Of a stretch of 64,000 nt of DNA, positions 7,474 through 11,958 are shown piece by piece. The stretch is from a virus, in IMG/VR virus record IMGVR_UViG_3300025466_000012, positions 62,001 through 126,000 of that record; one strand, given 5' to 3'. Both the position numbers and the translations under genes were made by a program. Within the stretch, counting starts at the first letter, position 1; each line of letters opens with the position of its first letter. The notes under the pieces were generated by a model. It was not told where the DNA came from, searched no databases, and saw only the letters and a list, made by a program, of their open reading frames with translations.

Positions 7474-8061
7474 ATGAAATCGTTATTGTTAGCATTATTA
7501 GTAGTAACAGGGGCCGCACAAGCTTCTAACAACTGGACCGGACTAGCTGGTCCAGTGACCAATTCCACTGGATTATGCTGGAGAAACAGTGCATGGACAC
7601 CGGCCACAGCCGAAACCAACTGCGACGGAGCCACACAGCCAGCGATCACAAAATCTGCCGAGCCTGTTGTTGTGCCCAAAGTTGAAAAATCAGTCGCAAT
7701 CGTGCAATTGCCTCCAGTGACATATTTGGCACAGTCCTTGTTCGATTTTGACCGTGCCGTGATCAAACCACAAGGTCTTCACACTCTTGATCAATTGGTA
7801 AAACGGTTAAAATCGGTCCATGTTGACAGCGTGATCGTGGTGGGACACACCGACAGTGTGGGCACCGATGCTTACAACATGCGATTGGGGCAACGACGAG
7901 CTCGAGCAGTGGCTGATTATCTGATCGGGCAAGGCATAGAGGCCAATCGTGTGTTTGCTGACAGCAAAGGCGAACGCGAGCCAGCTAGCACCAACAGCAC
8001 AGCATATGGTCGTTCCATGAATCGACGAGTGGTTGTAGAAGTCTACGGAACAGCCGACTGA
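7474..8061 (+). CDS. Exported OmpA-domain protein
   Basis: 195 residues with a signal peptide (MKSLLLALLVVTGAAQA) and a C-terminal OmpA/MotB peptidoglycan-binding domain: LFDFDRAVIKPQG, the VVGHTDSVGTDAYN strand-loop, LGQRRARAVADYL and a final SMNRRVVVEV. The GHTDxxG loop and NRRV motif bind diaminopimelate in the family. The start is the ATG after AAAGGAAATT. The product should sit in the periplasm on the cell wall; a role in lysis or in shielding the envelope is inference. Its TGA overlaps the ATG of the iscU stump. Confidence 0.85.
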   Translation: MKSLLLALLVVTGAAQASNNWTGLAGPVTNSTGLCWRNSAWTPATAETNCDGATQPAITKSAEPVVVPKVEKSVAIVQLPPVTYLAQSLFDFDRAVIKPQGLHTLDQLVKRLKSVHVDSVIVVGHTDSVGTDAYNMRLGQRRARAVADYLIGQGIEANRVFADSKGEREPASTNSTAYGRSMNRRVVVEVYGTAD

Positions 8062-8150
8062 TGGCCTATTCAGAAAAGTTACTCGATCATTATGAGAATC
8101 CACGCAATGTGGGTTCTTTTGCCAAAGACGAGGAAGGCATAGGCACCTGA
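8061..8150 (+). pseudogene. iscU: Truncated iscU stump (29 codons)
   Basis: ATG overlapping the ompA-domain stop (TGATG) encodes a 29-residue peptide beginning MAYSEKLLDHYENPRNVGSF, which is the IscU N terminus, then stops after EEGIGT exactly where IscU would continue with the VGAPxCGD loop. It lacks all three ligand cysteines and cannot work. Its codons match the surrounding phage genes, while the complete copy at 8816 is AT-richer. This suggests the stump is the original phage iscU start, cut off by the incoming cassette. Confidence 0.85.
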
Positions 8151-8226
8151 ATTAAAAAACGTGTATAATCTTAATATAGGCATTTATAAATGACCACATA
8201 CAGGTACTCCAAGACTAAATACTTAT

Positions 8227-8826
8227 ATGAAAAGCAAGTATGGTTTAATTAAAAAATGTCTTCATTGTAACCAAGATTTTGAAACAAAACCTAGATACTT
8301 AGAGTATTGTTCAACTCCTTGTAAAAATCCAATCAATCGTCCTGGAAACACTGCTTGGAATAAAGGTATTAAACTTACTAACGAACAAAAGTCTAAATTA
8401 AATATCGAAGGTCTTAAAAAAGGACACGGTTGGAATAAAGGTTTACCAAACAAAAGACAGAGTCAAAAATGGAAAGAAAATAATCCTAATGCAGACGGCA
8501 AATTAAATAATCTAAGAACTAAAAAACCTTGTAACGATGCTCTCAAACTTTATCGAGGAAAAGTTCGTTATGCTACATATAGAACTATTAAAGAAATGAA
8601 AGTTAATAATGAGTGGGTTCCTGTGTTTGGCAAATATAAACATAGTTGGCAAATAGATCATATCATTCCTATAGTTCAAGGGTTTGAATTGGGAATAGAT
8701 CCCTATTTACTTGGTAGTAAAAAAAATATACAATTTATTAAAGGTGAAGAAAACAGATCCAAGTGGGATAGTTTTCAAACTAACGATGTAATAGAGTCAA
8801 TAACAGGAGAAACATATGGCTTATAG
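8227..8826 (+). CDS. HNH homing endonuclease with NUMOD3-like repeats
   Basis: 199 residues. The N-terminal zinc finger uses Cys11/Cys14 and Cys28/Cys32. Two NUMOD3-like DNA-binding motifs follow (AWNKGIKLTNEQKSKL and GWNKGLPNKRQSQKW). The C-terminal HNH motif is WQIDHIIPIV (Asp144-His145) with GSKKNIQFIKGEENRSKW. It is strongly AT-rich compared with the phage genes. Its last 11 bases overlap the start of the second iscU, so endonuclease and target gene are physically coupled. Probably a site-specific enzyme that spreads this iscU allele. Confidence 0.88.
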   Translation: MKSKYGLIKKCLHCNQDFETKPRYLEYCSTPCKNPINRPGNTAWNKGIKLTNEQKSKLNIEGLKKGHGWNKGLPNKRQSQKWKENNPNADGKLNNLRTKKPCNDALKLYRGKVRYATYRTIKEMKVNNEWVPVFGKYKHSWQIDHIIPIVQGFELGIDPYLLGSKKNIQFIKGEENRSKWDSFQTNDVIESITGETYGL

Positions 8827-10222
8827 TGATGCTGTTTTGGATCATTACGAAAATCCAAGAAATGTGGGATCGTTTAAGAAGGGTGACGAGGGTGTTGGAG
8901 TTGGACTTGTGGGGGCACCTAGTTGTGGAGATGTTTTACAGTTAAGTATAAAGGTAAATGATGTTGGAATTATTACAGACGCCCGGTTTAAAACTTACGG
9001 CTGTTTAACTAGTAATGCTCCTGTTAATACTCCAACCTGCATTAAAAAAATAAAAGATTTAAAAATCGGCGACGAGGTGTTGGCCTGGAACGGTGAAAAA
9101 ATTGTTAATCAAAAAATACAAAATATAATTAAACATTCGGTTGATGTTGATGAGTTGTTGATTATTACTTTTAAACGCGAGACGAGTAGAAAAAATACCA
9201 ATCCTGGCACCTTCTCATTAATTTGCACAAAAGAACATATATTTTGGAATGCCGATAATACACCAGTAGAAGCACAACAACTACAAGTAGGTCAAGAGTT
9301 GTATGAAATAACCGAACACGAGTTACGAATTCTTACAAATAATAGACATCGCACAGAACTCAAACAAAAAAATAGCAATAGAATGAAAGAATGGAATCAA
9401 ATTTTTGATCATTCAGTATTACCACAAAATCAATCCGGGTATGTGTGTAAAGATTTAGAAACCAAAAAGAAAAAATCTAGGATTGCTTCTTTAAAAAATT
9501 GGAAAGATTCTGATTATGTCAAAAAATGGCAACAGGGAATGGCACGAAGAGATTGGTCTAAACCTACTAGTATTGAACAAAAATATATTGATTTATTTGA
9601 AGAAAACAATGTAGCAATAAAATGGAGTGCTGGAAAGATATGGATTCAAACTGATGCAGGACCAGCAAGCCCAGATTTTATTGTTCCTGGTAAGAAAAAA
9701 TGCATAGAAGTGTATACAAAGCGTATGCCCAAATTCATGCAAGATAGGTCAGAAGAATCAAATTATGTAGTGAATCGTCGCAAACAGTTGGCCACAGCCG
9801 GCTACGATTCATTATTTTTAGCAATAGAAGATATTGATAAATCATTGTCAGAAGTGCAAAATTTCATTCATAACGGAATGAAAATTGTAGATGTTTCACC
9901 AATTACTCATTTAAATCAGTTACGCGGTTGTGAAAGAGATGGAAAATCAGTTGTGGTATATGATTTAAAATTAGAGGGTGGAGCTCATGTGTTTTTCTCT
10001 AACAGAGTTGGGTCACATAATTGTGGATCGGCTATTGCATCATCCAGTCTTATCACTGAATGGGTCAAAGGGAAAACACTGGACGAAGCAGGAAGCATTA
10101 AGAACAGCCAAATTGCTGAAGAGTTGGCGCTCCCGCCCGTCAAAATACATTGTAGCATATTGGCAGAATCCGCCATTACAGCGGCAATTGACGACTATAA
10201 GAAAAGACATAACCTAACATAG
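8816..10222 (+). CDS. iscU: Fe-S cluster scaffold IscU interrupted by an intein
   Basis: 468-residue precursor. Residues 1-62 and 403-468 join into a 128-residue IscU, the length of the E. coli protein. Mature IscU receives sulfur and iron and builds [2Fe-2S] clusters for apo-proteins. All active residues are present: Cys37 and Asp39 (SCGD), Cys63 (YG/CGS, the splice junction), the LPPVK chaperone motif and Cys106 (IHCS). The intein occupies residues 63-402. It is followed by a Vsr-like endonuclease gene and then iscA. The exteins use AT-rich codons unlike the local stump. Splicing activity is predicted from motifs, not shown. Confidence 0.93.
   Translation: MAYSDAVLDHYENPRNVGSFKKGDEGVGVGLVGAPSCGDVLQLSIKVNDVGIITDARFKTYGCLTSNAPVNTPTCIKKIKDLKIGDEVLAWNGEKIVNQKIQNIIKHSVDVDELLIITFKRETSRKNTNPGTFSLICTKEHIFWNADNTPVEAQQLQVGQELYEITEHELRILTNNRHRTELKQKNSNRMKEWNQIFDHSVLPQNQSGYVCKDLETKKKKSRIASLKNWKDSDYVKKWQQGMARRDWSKPTSIEQKYIDLFEENNVAIKWSAGKIWIQTDAGPASPDFIVPGKKKCIEVYTKRMPKFMQDRSEESNYVVNRRKQLATAGYDSLFLAIEDIDKSLSEVQNFIHNGMKIVDVSPITHLNQLRGCERDGKSVVVYDLKLEGGAHVFFSNRVGSHNCGSAIASSSLITEWVKGKTLDEAGSIKNSQIAEELALPPVKIHCSILAESAITAAIDDYKKRHNLT
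9002..10021 (+). mobile_element. Intein (340 aa) with Vsr-like endonuclease domain in IscU
   Basis: Begins at Cys63 (block A CLTSNAPVNTPT, then DLKIGDEVLAW) and has block B with Thr138 and His141 (LICTKEHIF). Block F is VVVYDLKLEGGAHVFFSN, and block G ends in His401-Asn402 before Cys403 as the +1 residue, so every class 1 splicing residue is in place. The middle lacks LAGLIDADG. It has the E...PDF...IEVY pattern (Glu254, Asp287, Glu298) of Vsr/EDxHD-type nucleases, preceded by a basic DNA-binding-like segment. Removal in frame restores a standard IscU. Confidence 0.9.
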
Positions 10223-10248: not shown

Positions 10249-10995
10249 ATGAATAGGTGTAAATGTGGTTGTGGAATATCACTTAGAAAAGATAATAGAA
10301 CTGGATACCAAAAAGGTCATAAACCATGCCCTATTTGCGGTACACTGATAAAGGGCTCAAGTATAGAGTGCTGTTCAAAATCTTGCTCTGCTAAACTACA
10401 CTGGCAAAGAAATCCAGATATGGCAGAATCTAGAACCTGGAATGCTGAACGATATGCTACTAGAGAACAGAATAGAGATACTTGGGTTAAAAACTTGTCA
10501 AATGCTTGCAAAGGTAGAACTCCTTGGAATAAAGATACGCAAGGATTACAAGTAGCGTGGAATAAAGGGTTACCTGGTAATTTTAAGGGAAAGAGGCACA
10601 GTTCTGATTATATTGAAAAAGTTAAAAAGACCAATCTTGAAAGATATGGTGTAGAAAATGTTGGACATTTTGCTAAAACTTCTCCTCGTAGTAAAAAAGA
10701 AAAATCTCTAGAAACAATTTTAATTGATTATGAGATCAATGTTAAAATTGGAAAATACAAACCAGATTATGTGAATGAATCAACTAAACACATAATAGAA
10801 ATTTATGGTGATTACTGGCATTGTAATCCAAAATTATTCAATAAAGATTTTTATCATCCTCAGCTGAAAAAGACAGCCGAAGAAAAATGGTTATTAGATT
10901 TAACTAGACAACAGTATTTTGAATCTTTAGGATACACAGTAGAAATAATATGGGAAAGCGAATTAGATGATTACCGTAACCGACACGGCCAGTAA
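10249..10995 (+). CDS. Vsr-like (EDxHD) homing endonuclease
   Basis: 248 residues from the ATG at 10249 (MNRCKCGCG); the TTG at 10234 is less likely. N-terminal Cys clusters (CKCGCG, CPICG, CCSKSC) look like zinc ribbons. NUMOD3-like repeats (TPWNKDTQG, AWNKGLPG) and the TNLERYGVENVG motif follow. The catalytic domain has Glu155, Asp173 (KPDY), EIYGDYWH (184-191) and LDLTRQQYFESLGY-VEIIWESEL, the Vsr-fold pattern. It is AT-rich and overlaps the iscA start by 29 bases. Together with the intein nuclease it brackets the C-extein of iscU. Confidence 0.85.
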   Translation: MNRCKCGCGISLRKDNRTGYQKGHKPCPICGTLIKGSSIECCSKSCSAKLHWQRNPDMAESRTWNAERYATREQNRDTWVKNLSNACKGRTPWNKDTQGLQVAWNKGLPGNFKGKRHSSDYIEKVKKTNLERYGVENVGHFAKTSPRSKKEKSLETILIDYEINVKIGKYKPDYVNESTKHIIEIYGDYWHCNPKLFNKDFYHPQLKKTAEEKWLLDLTRQQYFESLGYTVEIIWESELDDYRNRHGQ

Positions 10996-11293
10996 AAAGA
11001 TTGCGCAGAATCTCCAACGCCGCGGACACGGTGTGGGTATCCGAGTGGGTGTGCGCACCACTGGGTGTTCGGGCTTGGCCTATGTGTTGGAATATATAGA
11101 TGACATAACCAAGACTTCTGGGGCCATCGATCATGCTCATGACGATTTTGTCATAAGAATAGACCAACGTGATATTGCCTATCTCGAAGGCATGACCATA
11201 GACTATGTGCGTCAAGGACTCAACGAAGGATTTGAATTCGTGAATCCCAACGAACGGGATCGTTGCGGGTGTGGAGAAAGTTTTCGCGTATGA
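10967..11293 (+). CDS. iscA: A-type Fe-S carrier protein IscA
   Basis: 108 residues of the HesB/IscA family, which carries clusters or iron from IscU to target enzymes. The three ligand cysteines are Cys34 (TTGCSGLAY) and Cys100/Cys102 (DRCGCGESF). Codon use is ordinary for this phage, so it predates the cassette upstream. The adjacent iscU makes a minimal scaffold-plus-carrier pair without the desulfurase or chaperones, so the phage would rely on host IscS and HscAB. Its stop overlaps the next ATG. Confidence 0.93.
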   Translation: MITVTDTASKKIAQNLQRRGHGVGIRVGVRTTGCSGLAYVLEYIDDITKTSGAIDHAHDDFVIRIDQRDIAYLEGMTIDYVRQGLNEGFEFVNPNERDRCGCGESFRV

Positions 11294-11958
11294 AAATCTG
11301 CATAGTAGGATTTCCTAGATCTAGAAGTAGTCTTCTTTTAGAAGCTATCGGAAATCATCATGGAATACCTATTTTGGGTCAAGACTTGGAACAGATTGTT
11401 AGCTTACCTAACATAGCCCCACACTCTGAGCAGTACATGAAATTGCTGGCTGGAATACTAACCAAACCGGTTGGAGTAATAAGATTACATCCTGCTCAGC
11501 TTGCATACAAAAAAATCATCTGCGAATTTGACCTGTTTAATTTTGAACAGTACACCCACATCTATCTAACTGCTAGACGGTGTATAGCAGATGCAATCAG
11601 CAGCAATTTGGTAGCCCGCCATCTAAATATGTGGAACTACAATCAAGATAATCCGTCTCTCGAATTTGTGGAGCCTATCGAACTAACCGAGCAATATCAC
11701 AAAGATGTAAAACATTATGTGTATAGCGAGCATATTATGGCCGAATTACAATCGTATTTCTTGAATAAAAATATTAAATTCACACAGTTATACTATGAGG
11801 ATATTCCAGAATTTGTTAGAGACAATCTTGGAAATACCGATGTGTCTCATGTGAAGACCAATTATCAATACAGTACCATAATTAAAAACTACAATAGCAT
11901 AATGCAGTTATACCATATCTACAAAGAACAGTTACAACAGTTGACATTGACGCAGTGA
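11290..11958 (+). CDS. Sulfotransferase-like P-loop protein
   Basis: 222 residues. N-terminal CIVGFPRSRSSLL is the 5'-phosphosulfate-binding loop of sulfotransferases, and LTARRCIADAISSNLVARH resembles the 3'-phosphate-binding RxxxxxxxS segment. PAPS-dependent transfer of sulfate to a glycan or small molecule is the family activity; the substrate here is unknown. The gene is clearly more AT-rich than iscA and probably a recent acquisition. The start is the ATG of the ATGA overlap with iscA. Confidence 0.75.
   Translation: MKICIVGFPRSRSSLLLEAIGNHHGIPILGQDLEQIVSLPNIAPHSEQYMKLLAGILTKPVGVIRLHPAQLAYKKIICEFDLFNFEQYTHIYLTARRCIADAISSNLVARHLNMWNYNQDNPSLEFVEPIELTEQYHKDVKHYVYSEHIMAELQSYFLNKNIKFTQLYYEDIPEFVRDNLGNTDVSHVKTNYQYSTIIKNYNSIMQLYHIYKEQLQQLTLTQ

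What the first reader, a model, noticed from the sequence alone, without database searches (positions are those of the whole stretch)
8061..8150. Original iscU reduced to a 29-codon stump beside the invading copy
The stump encodes the IscU N terminus in phage-typical codons and stops before the first ligand loop. The full copy 666 bases later encodes the same region in AT-rich codons. This is a snapshot of allele replacement by a homing cassette, with the left breakpoint visible near 8148 and the right near 10966.
Basis: seen in the sequence. Interest (0 to 1): 0.8.

Follow-up and report, generated by a model that had tools for sequence, protein, structure and literature searches.

The report
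Homing-endonuclease scar in phage iscU
The 29-codon fragment is the leftover start of a phage's own iron-sulfur scaffold gene (iscU), whose front half was replaced by a selfish DNA-cutting gene plus a cut-resistant version of the same gene; in dozens of related phages the cut-resistant version contains a stop codon and a 3-7 base gap that the ribosome apparently has to jump over.

Summary
Observation confirmed. 8061-8150 is the first 29 codons of a native iscU. It matches HNH-free relatives (84% to syntenic L004). It is followed by an HNH endonuclease gene (HNH1) and a complete iscU. Codons 1-62 of that copy are foreign, closest to other HNH1 phages. Intein and HEG2 (3' of iscU) are separate modules.

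HNH1 sits directly 5' of iscU in all distinct loci with enough flank. Six of 50 carry 5' iscU stumps (29, 12, 11, 8, 6, ~4 codons). The presumed HNH1 target, GAPACGDV, is intact in 113/117 HNH1-free iscU but altered in essentially every HNH1-linked one (P=1e-13). The window allele reads GAPSCGDV.

Outside the window, most HNH1 alleles are interrupted at that target: GGN, immediate stop, 3-7 nt gap, GGN GAY GTN (77 genes, all three frame offsets), preceded by AGGAG and a covarying hairpin (480/480 lower-stem pairs), with purifying selection downstream. A second such site exists near codon 101. Best reading: a homing cassette protected by short ribosomal hops, like T4 mobA/gene 60. Nothing was tested experimentally.

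The parts
7474..8061 (+). OmpA-domain gene directly upstream of the resident iscU; stop overlaps stump start (TGATG)
   Evidence: Pfam OmpA E=5e-21; L122 has an uninterrupted ompA-iscU order
8061..8150 (+). Stump: codons 1-29 of the resident iscU, then TGA
   Evidence: 84% nt identity to L004 and 82% to L008, HNH-free phages; PHROG 8429
8148..8202 (+). Non-iscU AT-rich link at the left junction, with TATAAATG (8185-8192), a T4-late-promoter-like motif also seen at this place in L307/L308
   Evidence: sequence
8203..8221 (+). Conserved left edge of the HNH1 cassette: GGTACTCCAAG, resembling the iscU GAPS codons, followed by TAAATA; possible operator plus late promoter
   Evidence: GGNGCNCCNAG with at most 2 mismatches in 51/51 left edges against 5.5% of shuffled ones
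8227..8826 (+). HNH1, free-standing HNH-type homing endonuclease gene; its 3' end overlaps the iscU start
   Evidence: always immediately 5' of iscU; HNH motif DHIIP..N..N; weak Pfam HNH in 6/11 family members
8816..9001 (+). Foreign N-terminal half of iscU (codons 1-62)
   Evidence: GC3 0.28-0.30; nearest relatives L244, L281/282 and L289, all HNH1 carriers
8912..8935 (+). Presumed HNH1 target, recoded GAPSCGDV (ancestral GAPACGDV)
   Evidence: altered in 13/14 ungapped HNH1+ alleles against 4/117 HNH1- alleles, P=1e-13
9002..10021 (+). Intein inserted before IscU Cys63 (KTYG/C..HN/CGSA)
   Evidence: Hint matches; 39 loci, in iscU wherever the flank is present
10022..10222 (+). Native C-terminal half of iscU (codons 63-128)
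   Evidence: nearest L120 (84-85%) and L004 (79-81%); GC3 0.42
10249..10995 (+). HEG2, Vsr-like homing endonuclease gene, a separate module between iscU and iscA
   Evidence: TIGR00632 vsr E=1e-5; PHROG 3339 homing endonuclease E=7e-4; same place in other phages without HNH1
10967..11293 (+). iscA, overlapping the HEG2 3' end
   Evidence: Pfam Fe-S_biosyn E=7e-15

Best explanation
The stump is the vestige of the phage's resident iscU. An HNH homing endonuclease gene (HNH1), whose target is most likely the iscU stretch coding GAPACGDV (codons 33-40, the Cys37 ligand loop), entered together with a cut-resistant iscU N-terminal half. On the right the incoming tract joined the resident gene by homology inside iscU (at or before codon 62/63), restoring a full IscU. 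Shown: stump identity, the foreign/native chimera, fixed linkage of HNH1 to iscU, recurrent stumps, and an altered target in essentially every HNH1 carrier. Inferred: cleavage by HNH1, its exact cut site, and the joining mechanism. In most relatives the resistant allele is an interruption at the target: GGN, stop, 3-7 nt gap, GGN, preceded by a Shine-Dalgarno-like motif and a conserved hairpin. The ribosome must cross it to make IscU, most simply by a short hop from one glycine codon to the next (inferred). The window's own allele is the substitution type (GAPS) and needs no hop.
For: Stump nearest to HNH-free phages (L004 84%, L008 82%) but 60-69% to HNH1 carriers; full-copy codons 1-37 nearest to HNH1 carriers (73-77%) but 60-68% to L004/L008; codons 63-128 nearest to L120/L004. 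HNH1 abuts iscU at near-fixed spacing in about 50 distinct loci; 5' stumps in 6/50, all ending before the target. Target GAPACGDV kept in 113/117 HNH1- alleles, altered in 13/14 ungapped HNH1+ alleles, P=1e-13. 77 distinct gapped genes, stop directly after GGN, gaps of 3-7 nt covering all three frame offsets; landing codons GGN GAY GTN vary only at third positions in 73/73 genes found with a pattern that did not require them. Hairpin 480/480 lower-stem cells paired with 33 both-side changes (0/500 shuffles); ungapped control 58.5% and no covariation. AGGAG-like motif 48/48 against 8/126. Downstream dN/dS 0.08-0.14, like the control 0.09. 16 gapped loci with at least 900 bp upstream have no HNH1, so the gapped gene outlives the nuclease. 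Gapped iscU is the only iscU found in seven phage contigs of 24-354 kb.
Against: No cleavage, recombination or translation data exist. HNH1 matches Pfam HNH only weakly (E=0.013-0.08) and its AlphaFold model is poor (pLDDT 47). Take-off and landing glycine codons are identical in only 29/77, about what codon frequencies predict (my estimate 25). Six related contigs have the gap TGTT without an immediate stop. G002 (524 kb) carries a second, intact iscU. 44 of 50 HNH1 loci have no detectable stump. The stump junction could be a later deletion rather than the primary join.
Confidence: 0.8

Rival explanations
1. In the relatives the gapped iscU is a split gene: ribosomes stop after codon 38 and a second polypeptide starts downstream by reinitiation; the two pieces assemble.
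For: An in-frame ATG/GTG/TTG lies within ten codons of the landing site in 61/73 genes. Split but functional phage genes made by homing endonucleases are known (NrdA in Aeh1, PMC2988022).
Against: 12/73 lack any such start. The codons GGN GAY GTN between stop and candidate start keep codon-type constraint in 73/73. The hairpin and AGGAG motif 5' of the stop have no role in this model. The cut would fall inside the Cys37-Gly-Asp39 ligand loop.
Confidence: 0.17
2. One continuous donor tract from 8148 to about 10966: HNH1, iscU, intein and HEG2 arrived together.
For: All lie in an AT-rich stretch.
Against: iscU codons 63-128 are native in codon usage and similarity and share 27 identical nt with L004. 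Intein, HNH1 and HEG2 occur separately in other phages.
Confidence: 0.08
3. The stump is a functional leader peptide or 5' exon (intron or trans-splicing).
For: It is translationally coupled to ompA (TGATG) and HNH genes often sit in group I introns.
Against: No Rfam intron in the window. Stumps in other phages have other lengths and most HNH1 loci have none. The full copy has its own start and complete N terminus.
Confidence: 0.03
4. Stump or gaps are sequencing or assembly artefacts.
For: All data are metagenomic contigs.
Against: Stump region identical in four other assemblies. 77 distinct gapped genes share a structured upstream hairpin and purifying selection.
Confidence: 0.02

Closest known systems
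T4 mobA / gene 60 cassette (HNH homing endonuclease plus 50-nt translational bypass)
   Same: Free-standing HNH endonuclease beside its interrupted target gene; glycine take-off codon followed at once by a stop, glycine landing codon, 5' stem-loop, Shine-Dalgarno-like element; the interruption thought to protect the gene from the nuclease (PMC5009743, PMC11194080; recalled from memory: Bonocora et al. 2011 PNAS).
   Different: Gene is iscU, gap is 3-7 nt instead of 50, element is a family of at least 77 genes with variable gap, the hairpin pairs through the take-off codon's first G, a nascent-peptide signal was not looked for, and no experiment exists. In the window itself the protection is a codon change, not a gap.
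Intronless homing by free-standing endonucleases of T-even phages (SegF, SegG, MobE)
   Same: Nuclease gene next to its target gene, resistant neighbouring allele, co-conversion of neighbouring sequence (PMC2988022).
   Different: The T4 cut sites lie hundreds to thousands of bp from the nuclease gene (PMC2988022); here the presumed target is about 90 bp from the 3' end of HNH1, and the left junction leaves a duplicated 5' stump.
Synthetic 'stop-hops' (matched codons flanking a stop)
   Same: Peptidyl-tRNA leaves one codon at a stop and re-pairs a few nt downstream; PMC5009743 says short natural counterparts of gene 60 were long presumed.
   Different: Natural, conserved, and tied to a nuclease cassette; codons matched only at two of three bases in most cases.
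I-TevI operator/autorepression
   Same: Homing-site-like sequence at a late promoter upstream of the nuclease gene (PMC2988022).
   Different: Only a sequence resemblance here (GGNGCNCCNAG next to TAAATA); no binding data.

Membership tests
HNH free-standing homing endonuclease (HNH1) | HNH catalytic motif | tested here: inconclusive
   DH(I/V)(I/V)P...N...N conserved in A1; Pfam HNH sub-threshold in 6/11 members, best E=0.013; no PDB match; poor model
HNH free-standing homing endonuclease (HNH1) | Fixed genomic place beside one target gene in otherwise different phages | tested here: met
   immediately 5' of iscU in about 50 distinct loci
HNH free-standing homing endonuclease (HNH1) | Carrier genomes have a resistant (altered) target | tested here: met
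   GAPACGDV altered or gapped in essentially all carriers, 113/117 intact in non-carriers; resistance itself untested
HNH free-standing homing endonuclease (HNH1) | DNA cleavage and super-Mendelian transfer | not testable with these tools
   needs purified protein and mixed infection
T4 gene 60-type translational bypass (relatives, site 1) | Take-off codon followed by stop, landing codon of same amino acid, downstream ORF in any frame | tested here: met
   77 genes, Gly to Gly, gaps of 3-7 nt
T4 gene 60-type translational bypass (relatives, site 1) | Identical take-off and landing codons | tested here: not met
   identical in 29/77, the rest differ at the wobble base
T4 gene 60-type translational bypass (relatives, site 1) | 5' mRNA structure acting on take-off | tested here: met
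   covarying hairpin ending in the take-off codon; structure only, its action is untested
T4 gene 60-type translational bypass (relatives, site 1) | Full-length product across the gap | not testable with these tools
   needs reporter or mass spectrometry
T4 gene 60-type translational bypass (window allele) | Interruption present | tested here: not met
   window iscU reads GAPSCGDV without gap
Intein (9002-10021) | Cys1, C-terminal HN, Cys+1, Hint domain, in-frame ORF | tested here: met
   sequence; Hint E=8e-5, below Pfam cutoff
Vsr-like endonuclease (HEG2) | Vsr family signature | tested here: inconclusive
   TIGR00632 E=1.1e-5, below curated cutoff
Group I intron with HNH ORF | Intron RNA structure between exons | tested here: not met
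   no Rfam match in the window; full copy repeats the 5' exon

The most novel reading that the evidence does not exclude
Phage iscU genes targeted by homing endonucleases carry a family of natural 'stop-hops': a Shine-Dalgarno-like motif, a hairpin, a take-off codon, an immediate stop, a 2-7 nt gap and a landing codon, at one site per nuclease. Site 1 (Gly38, HNH1) is in at least 77 genes; site 2 (Pro before VKIHC, with HEG2-like nucleases downstream in most) is in about 16. The gap destroys the nuclease site while the ribosome hop keeps the protein. T4 gene 60 would then be one case of a widespread strategy with much shorter gaps. The stumped window iscU is the substitution-type sibling of this system.
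Probability: 0.62. Interest if true: 0.95.

Novelty: new variant of a known kind. Interest (0 to 1): 0.86.

Why it matters
It turns a single odd gene fragment into a record of how a selfish nuclease captures a conserved gene: it replaces the target with a resistant copy and leaves the old start behind. The relatives supply what reviews of recoding describe as long presumed but scarcely known: natural short counterparts of T4 gene 60 bypassing (PMC5009743), here in dozens of genes with variable gap length, two independent sites, alleles with and without the nuclease, and ungapped controls. That makes the origin and the minimal requirements of ribosomal bypassing directly testable.

Tried and rejected
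Intron or leader peptide: rejected (no Rfam hit; stumps vary). Single tract to 10966: rejected (C half native). AlphaFold of HNH1: pLDDT 47, not used. PDB sequence searches with the HNH1 family and the intein: nothing useful. HEG2 close homologues: searched for a recoded target at codons 95-113; no consistent change found with nine HEG2+ sequences, so the HEG2 target is unknown. Left edge GGNGCNCCNAG first read as an iscU remnant or microhomology pad; its conservation in all cassettes fits an operator better, but this is undecided. Matched take-off/landing codons: not enriched. First two pair counts failed on string length. Site-1 genome scan: no match in the 84,980-species genome collection. 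Literature: no paper found linking iscU, homing endonucleases and bypassing; the library lacks most subscription papers.

Full report
Setting. The window is bases 62001-126000 of a 199,683-bp IMG/VR virus contig. Around the finding the order is: ompA-like gene 7474-8061, iscU stump 8061-8150, HNH1 8227-8826, full iscU 8816-10222 with an intein at 9002-10021, HEG2 10249-10995, iscA 10967-11293.

The stump is real and native. Its best relatives at the DNA level are iscU genes of phages without any endonuclease there: L004 (84%) and L008 (82%). L004 is also the closest syntenic relative found (two neighbouring proteins 85-87% identical). Native iscU continues GTGMVGAPACGDV where the stump stops. 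The same junction is found with no mismatch in four other assemblies, most likely the same phage. L122 shows an uninterrupted ompA-iscU order.

The full copy is a chimera. Codons 1-37 are closest to L244, L281/L282 and L289, all of which carry HNH1 and the allele GAPSCGDVLxLSI; codons 38-62 are closest to L289 and L282. Codons 63-128 are closest to L120 and L004 and have native GC3 (0.42 against 0.28-0.30). L004 and the window share 27 identical bases over ALPPVKIHC. So the foreign tract ends at or before the intein insertion point.

Three independent mobile modules meet in this gene. A related intein was found in 39 loci, in iscU wherever the flank is present; HNH1 lies directly 5' of iscU; HEG2 lies about 29 bp 3' of iscU. 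They occur in different combinations in different phages. Eighty iscU loci were fetched without regard to them and most have none.

Stumps recur. Of 50 distinct HNH1 loci, six have a truncated iscU start just 5' of the cassette: window 29 codons, L289 12, L144 11, L128 8, L141 6, L137 about 4. All are shorter than the distance to the presumed target at codons 33-40. This fits a break at the target followed by trimming and a left join without long homology; the join itself is inferred. 44 loci have no stump, so it is usually lost.

The target. Among ungapped iscU genes without HNH1, 113 of 117 encode GAPACGDV; among 14 ungapped ones with HNH1, 13 are changed (GAPS 7, GSPA 3, GDL 2, one TGTT-gap form); the remaining one is most likely L114, whose HNH1 match is broken into two pieces (Fisher P=1e-13). 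The other HNH1 carriers have an interruption at exactly this place. The window belongs to the substitution type.

The interruption in relatives. At codon 38 the sequence reads GGN, then a stop codon at once, within a gap of 3-7 nt, then GGN GAY GTN, and the iscU reading frame goes on. 77 distinct genes were collected: gaps of 3 (2), 4 (38), 5 (21), 6 (13) and 7 (3) nt; stops TGA 40, TAG 23, TAA 14. A scan with a pattern that did not include the gap or the landing site gave 73 interrupted places, all with GGN GAY GTN after the gap and variation only at third positions. All three frame offsets occur, so no single frameshift or read-through can repair every gene; a hop between glycine codons can.

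Structure. Immediately 5' of the take-off codon is a hairpin; in 48 distinct sequences the ten lower-stem pairs form in 480 of 480 cells, with 33 both-side changes (0 of 500 shuffles as high). The same columns in 48 ungapped iscU genes pair in 58.5% without covariation. The register puts wobble positions opposite wobble positions. A Gln/His change (CAA/CAC/CAT) follows the Ala codon (GCT/GCG/GCA) opposite it. An AGGAG/GGAGG motif precedes the hairpin in 48/48 gapped and 8/126 ungapped genes.

Function. The downstream part is under the same purifying selection as ungapped iscU (median dN/dS 0.14 with HNH1, 0.08 without, control 0.09). Gapped genes without HNH1 occur in 16 loci with at least 900 bp of upstream sequence. 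In seven contigs of 24-354 kb the gapped gene is the only iscU found (the contigs may be incomplete). No exact match to the site-1 pattern plus stop exists in the 84,980-species prokaryote genome collection.

A second site. In phages mostly with HEG2-like nucleases downstream, iscU is interrupted again after ..ELALPP: CCN, stop, 2-7 nt, GTN AAR ATH CAY TGY. There are about 16 distinct loci, with an AGGAGG motif and a hairpin whose stem covaries (GGGGAGA/UCUCCCU against GGGCAAA/UUUGCCC; 97.9% paired, 9 both-side changes, 0/500 shuffles). Here the landing codon rarely matches the take-off codon.

Reading. The closest precedent is T4 gene 60 with mobA: a homing endonuclease and a bypassed insert that protects the gene (PMC5009743; mechanism PMC11194080). 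This system works like it, but with much shorter gaps and in another gene. Membership is partial: codons are often not matched and translation is untested. The left edge of the HNH1 cassette, GGNGCNCCNAG next to TAAATA, looks like the target and may be an operator, as for I-TevI (PMC2988022).

Limits. All evidence is comparative. The short N segments (87-111 nt) carry limited phylogenetic signal, though stump, N half and C half point in consistent directions.

Noticed in passing
L176, L181, L183-L188, L190, L203, L322, L328, L347, L402, L428, L433 (iscU codon ~101): Second stop-and-gap site in iscU (CCN, stop, 2-7 nt, VKIHC) with its own AGGAGG motif and covarying hairpin, in phages mostly carrying HEG2-like nucleases downstream.
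   Followed up: partly
L295, L296, L316, L342, L357, L371; L412: Variants of site 1 in which the gap (TGTT) has no immediate stop, or the landing codon is GAC; they do not fit the stop-hop rule.
   Followed up: no
window 9002-10021: Intein at IscU Cys63, found in 39 viral loci; the paper search gave no obvious description of an IscU intein.
   Followed up: partly
window 8203-8221: Target-like sequence plus late-promoter-like TAAATA directly upstream of the HNH1 genes; possible autorepressor operator and near-leaderless transcript.
   Followed up: partly
window 11290-11958: AT-rich P-loop/sulfotransferase-like ORF (by eye; no Pfam support) between iscA and the next gene; absent at this place in the closest syntenic relative L004.
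   Followed up: no
L116:4190-4210: Apparent one-base deletion in an A-run of iscU near VK/IHC breaks the frame; could be error or slippage.
   Followed up: no
G002 (L292 contig, 524 kb): Carries both an intact and a gapped iscU, about 271 kb apart.
   Followed up: no
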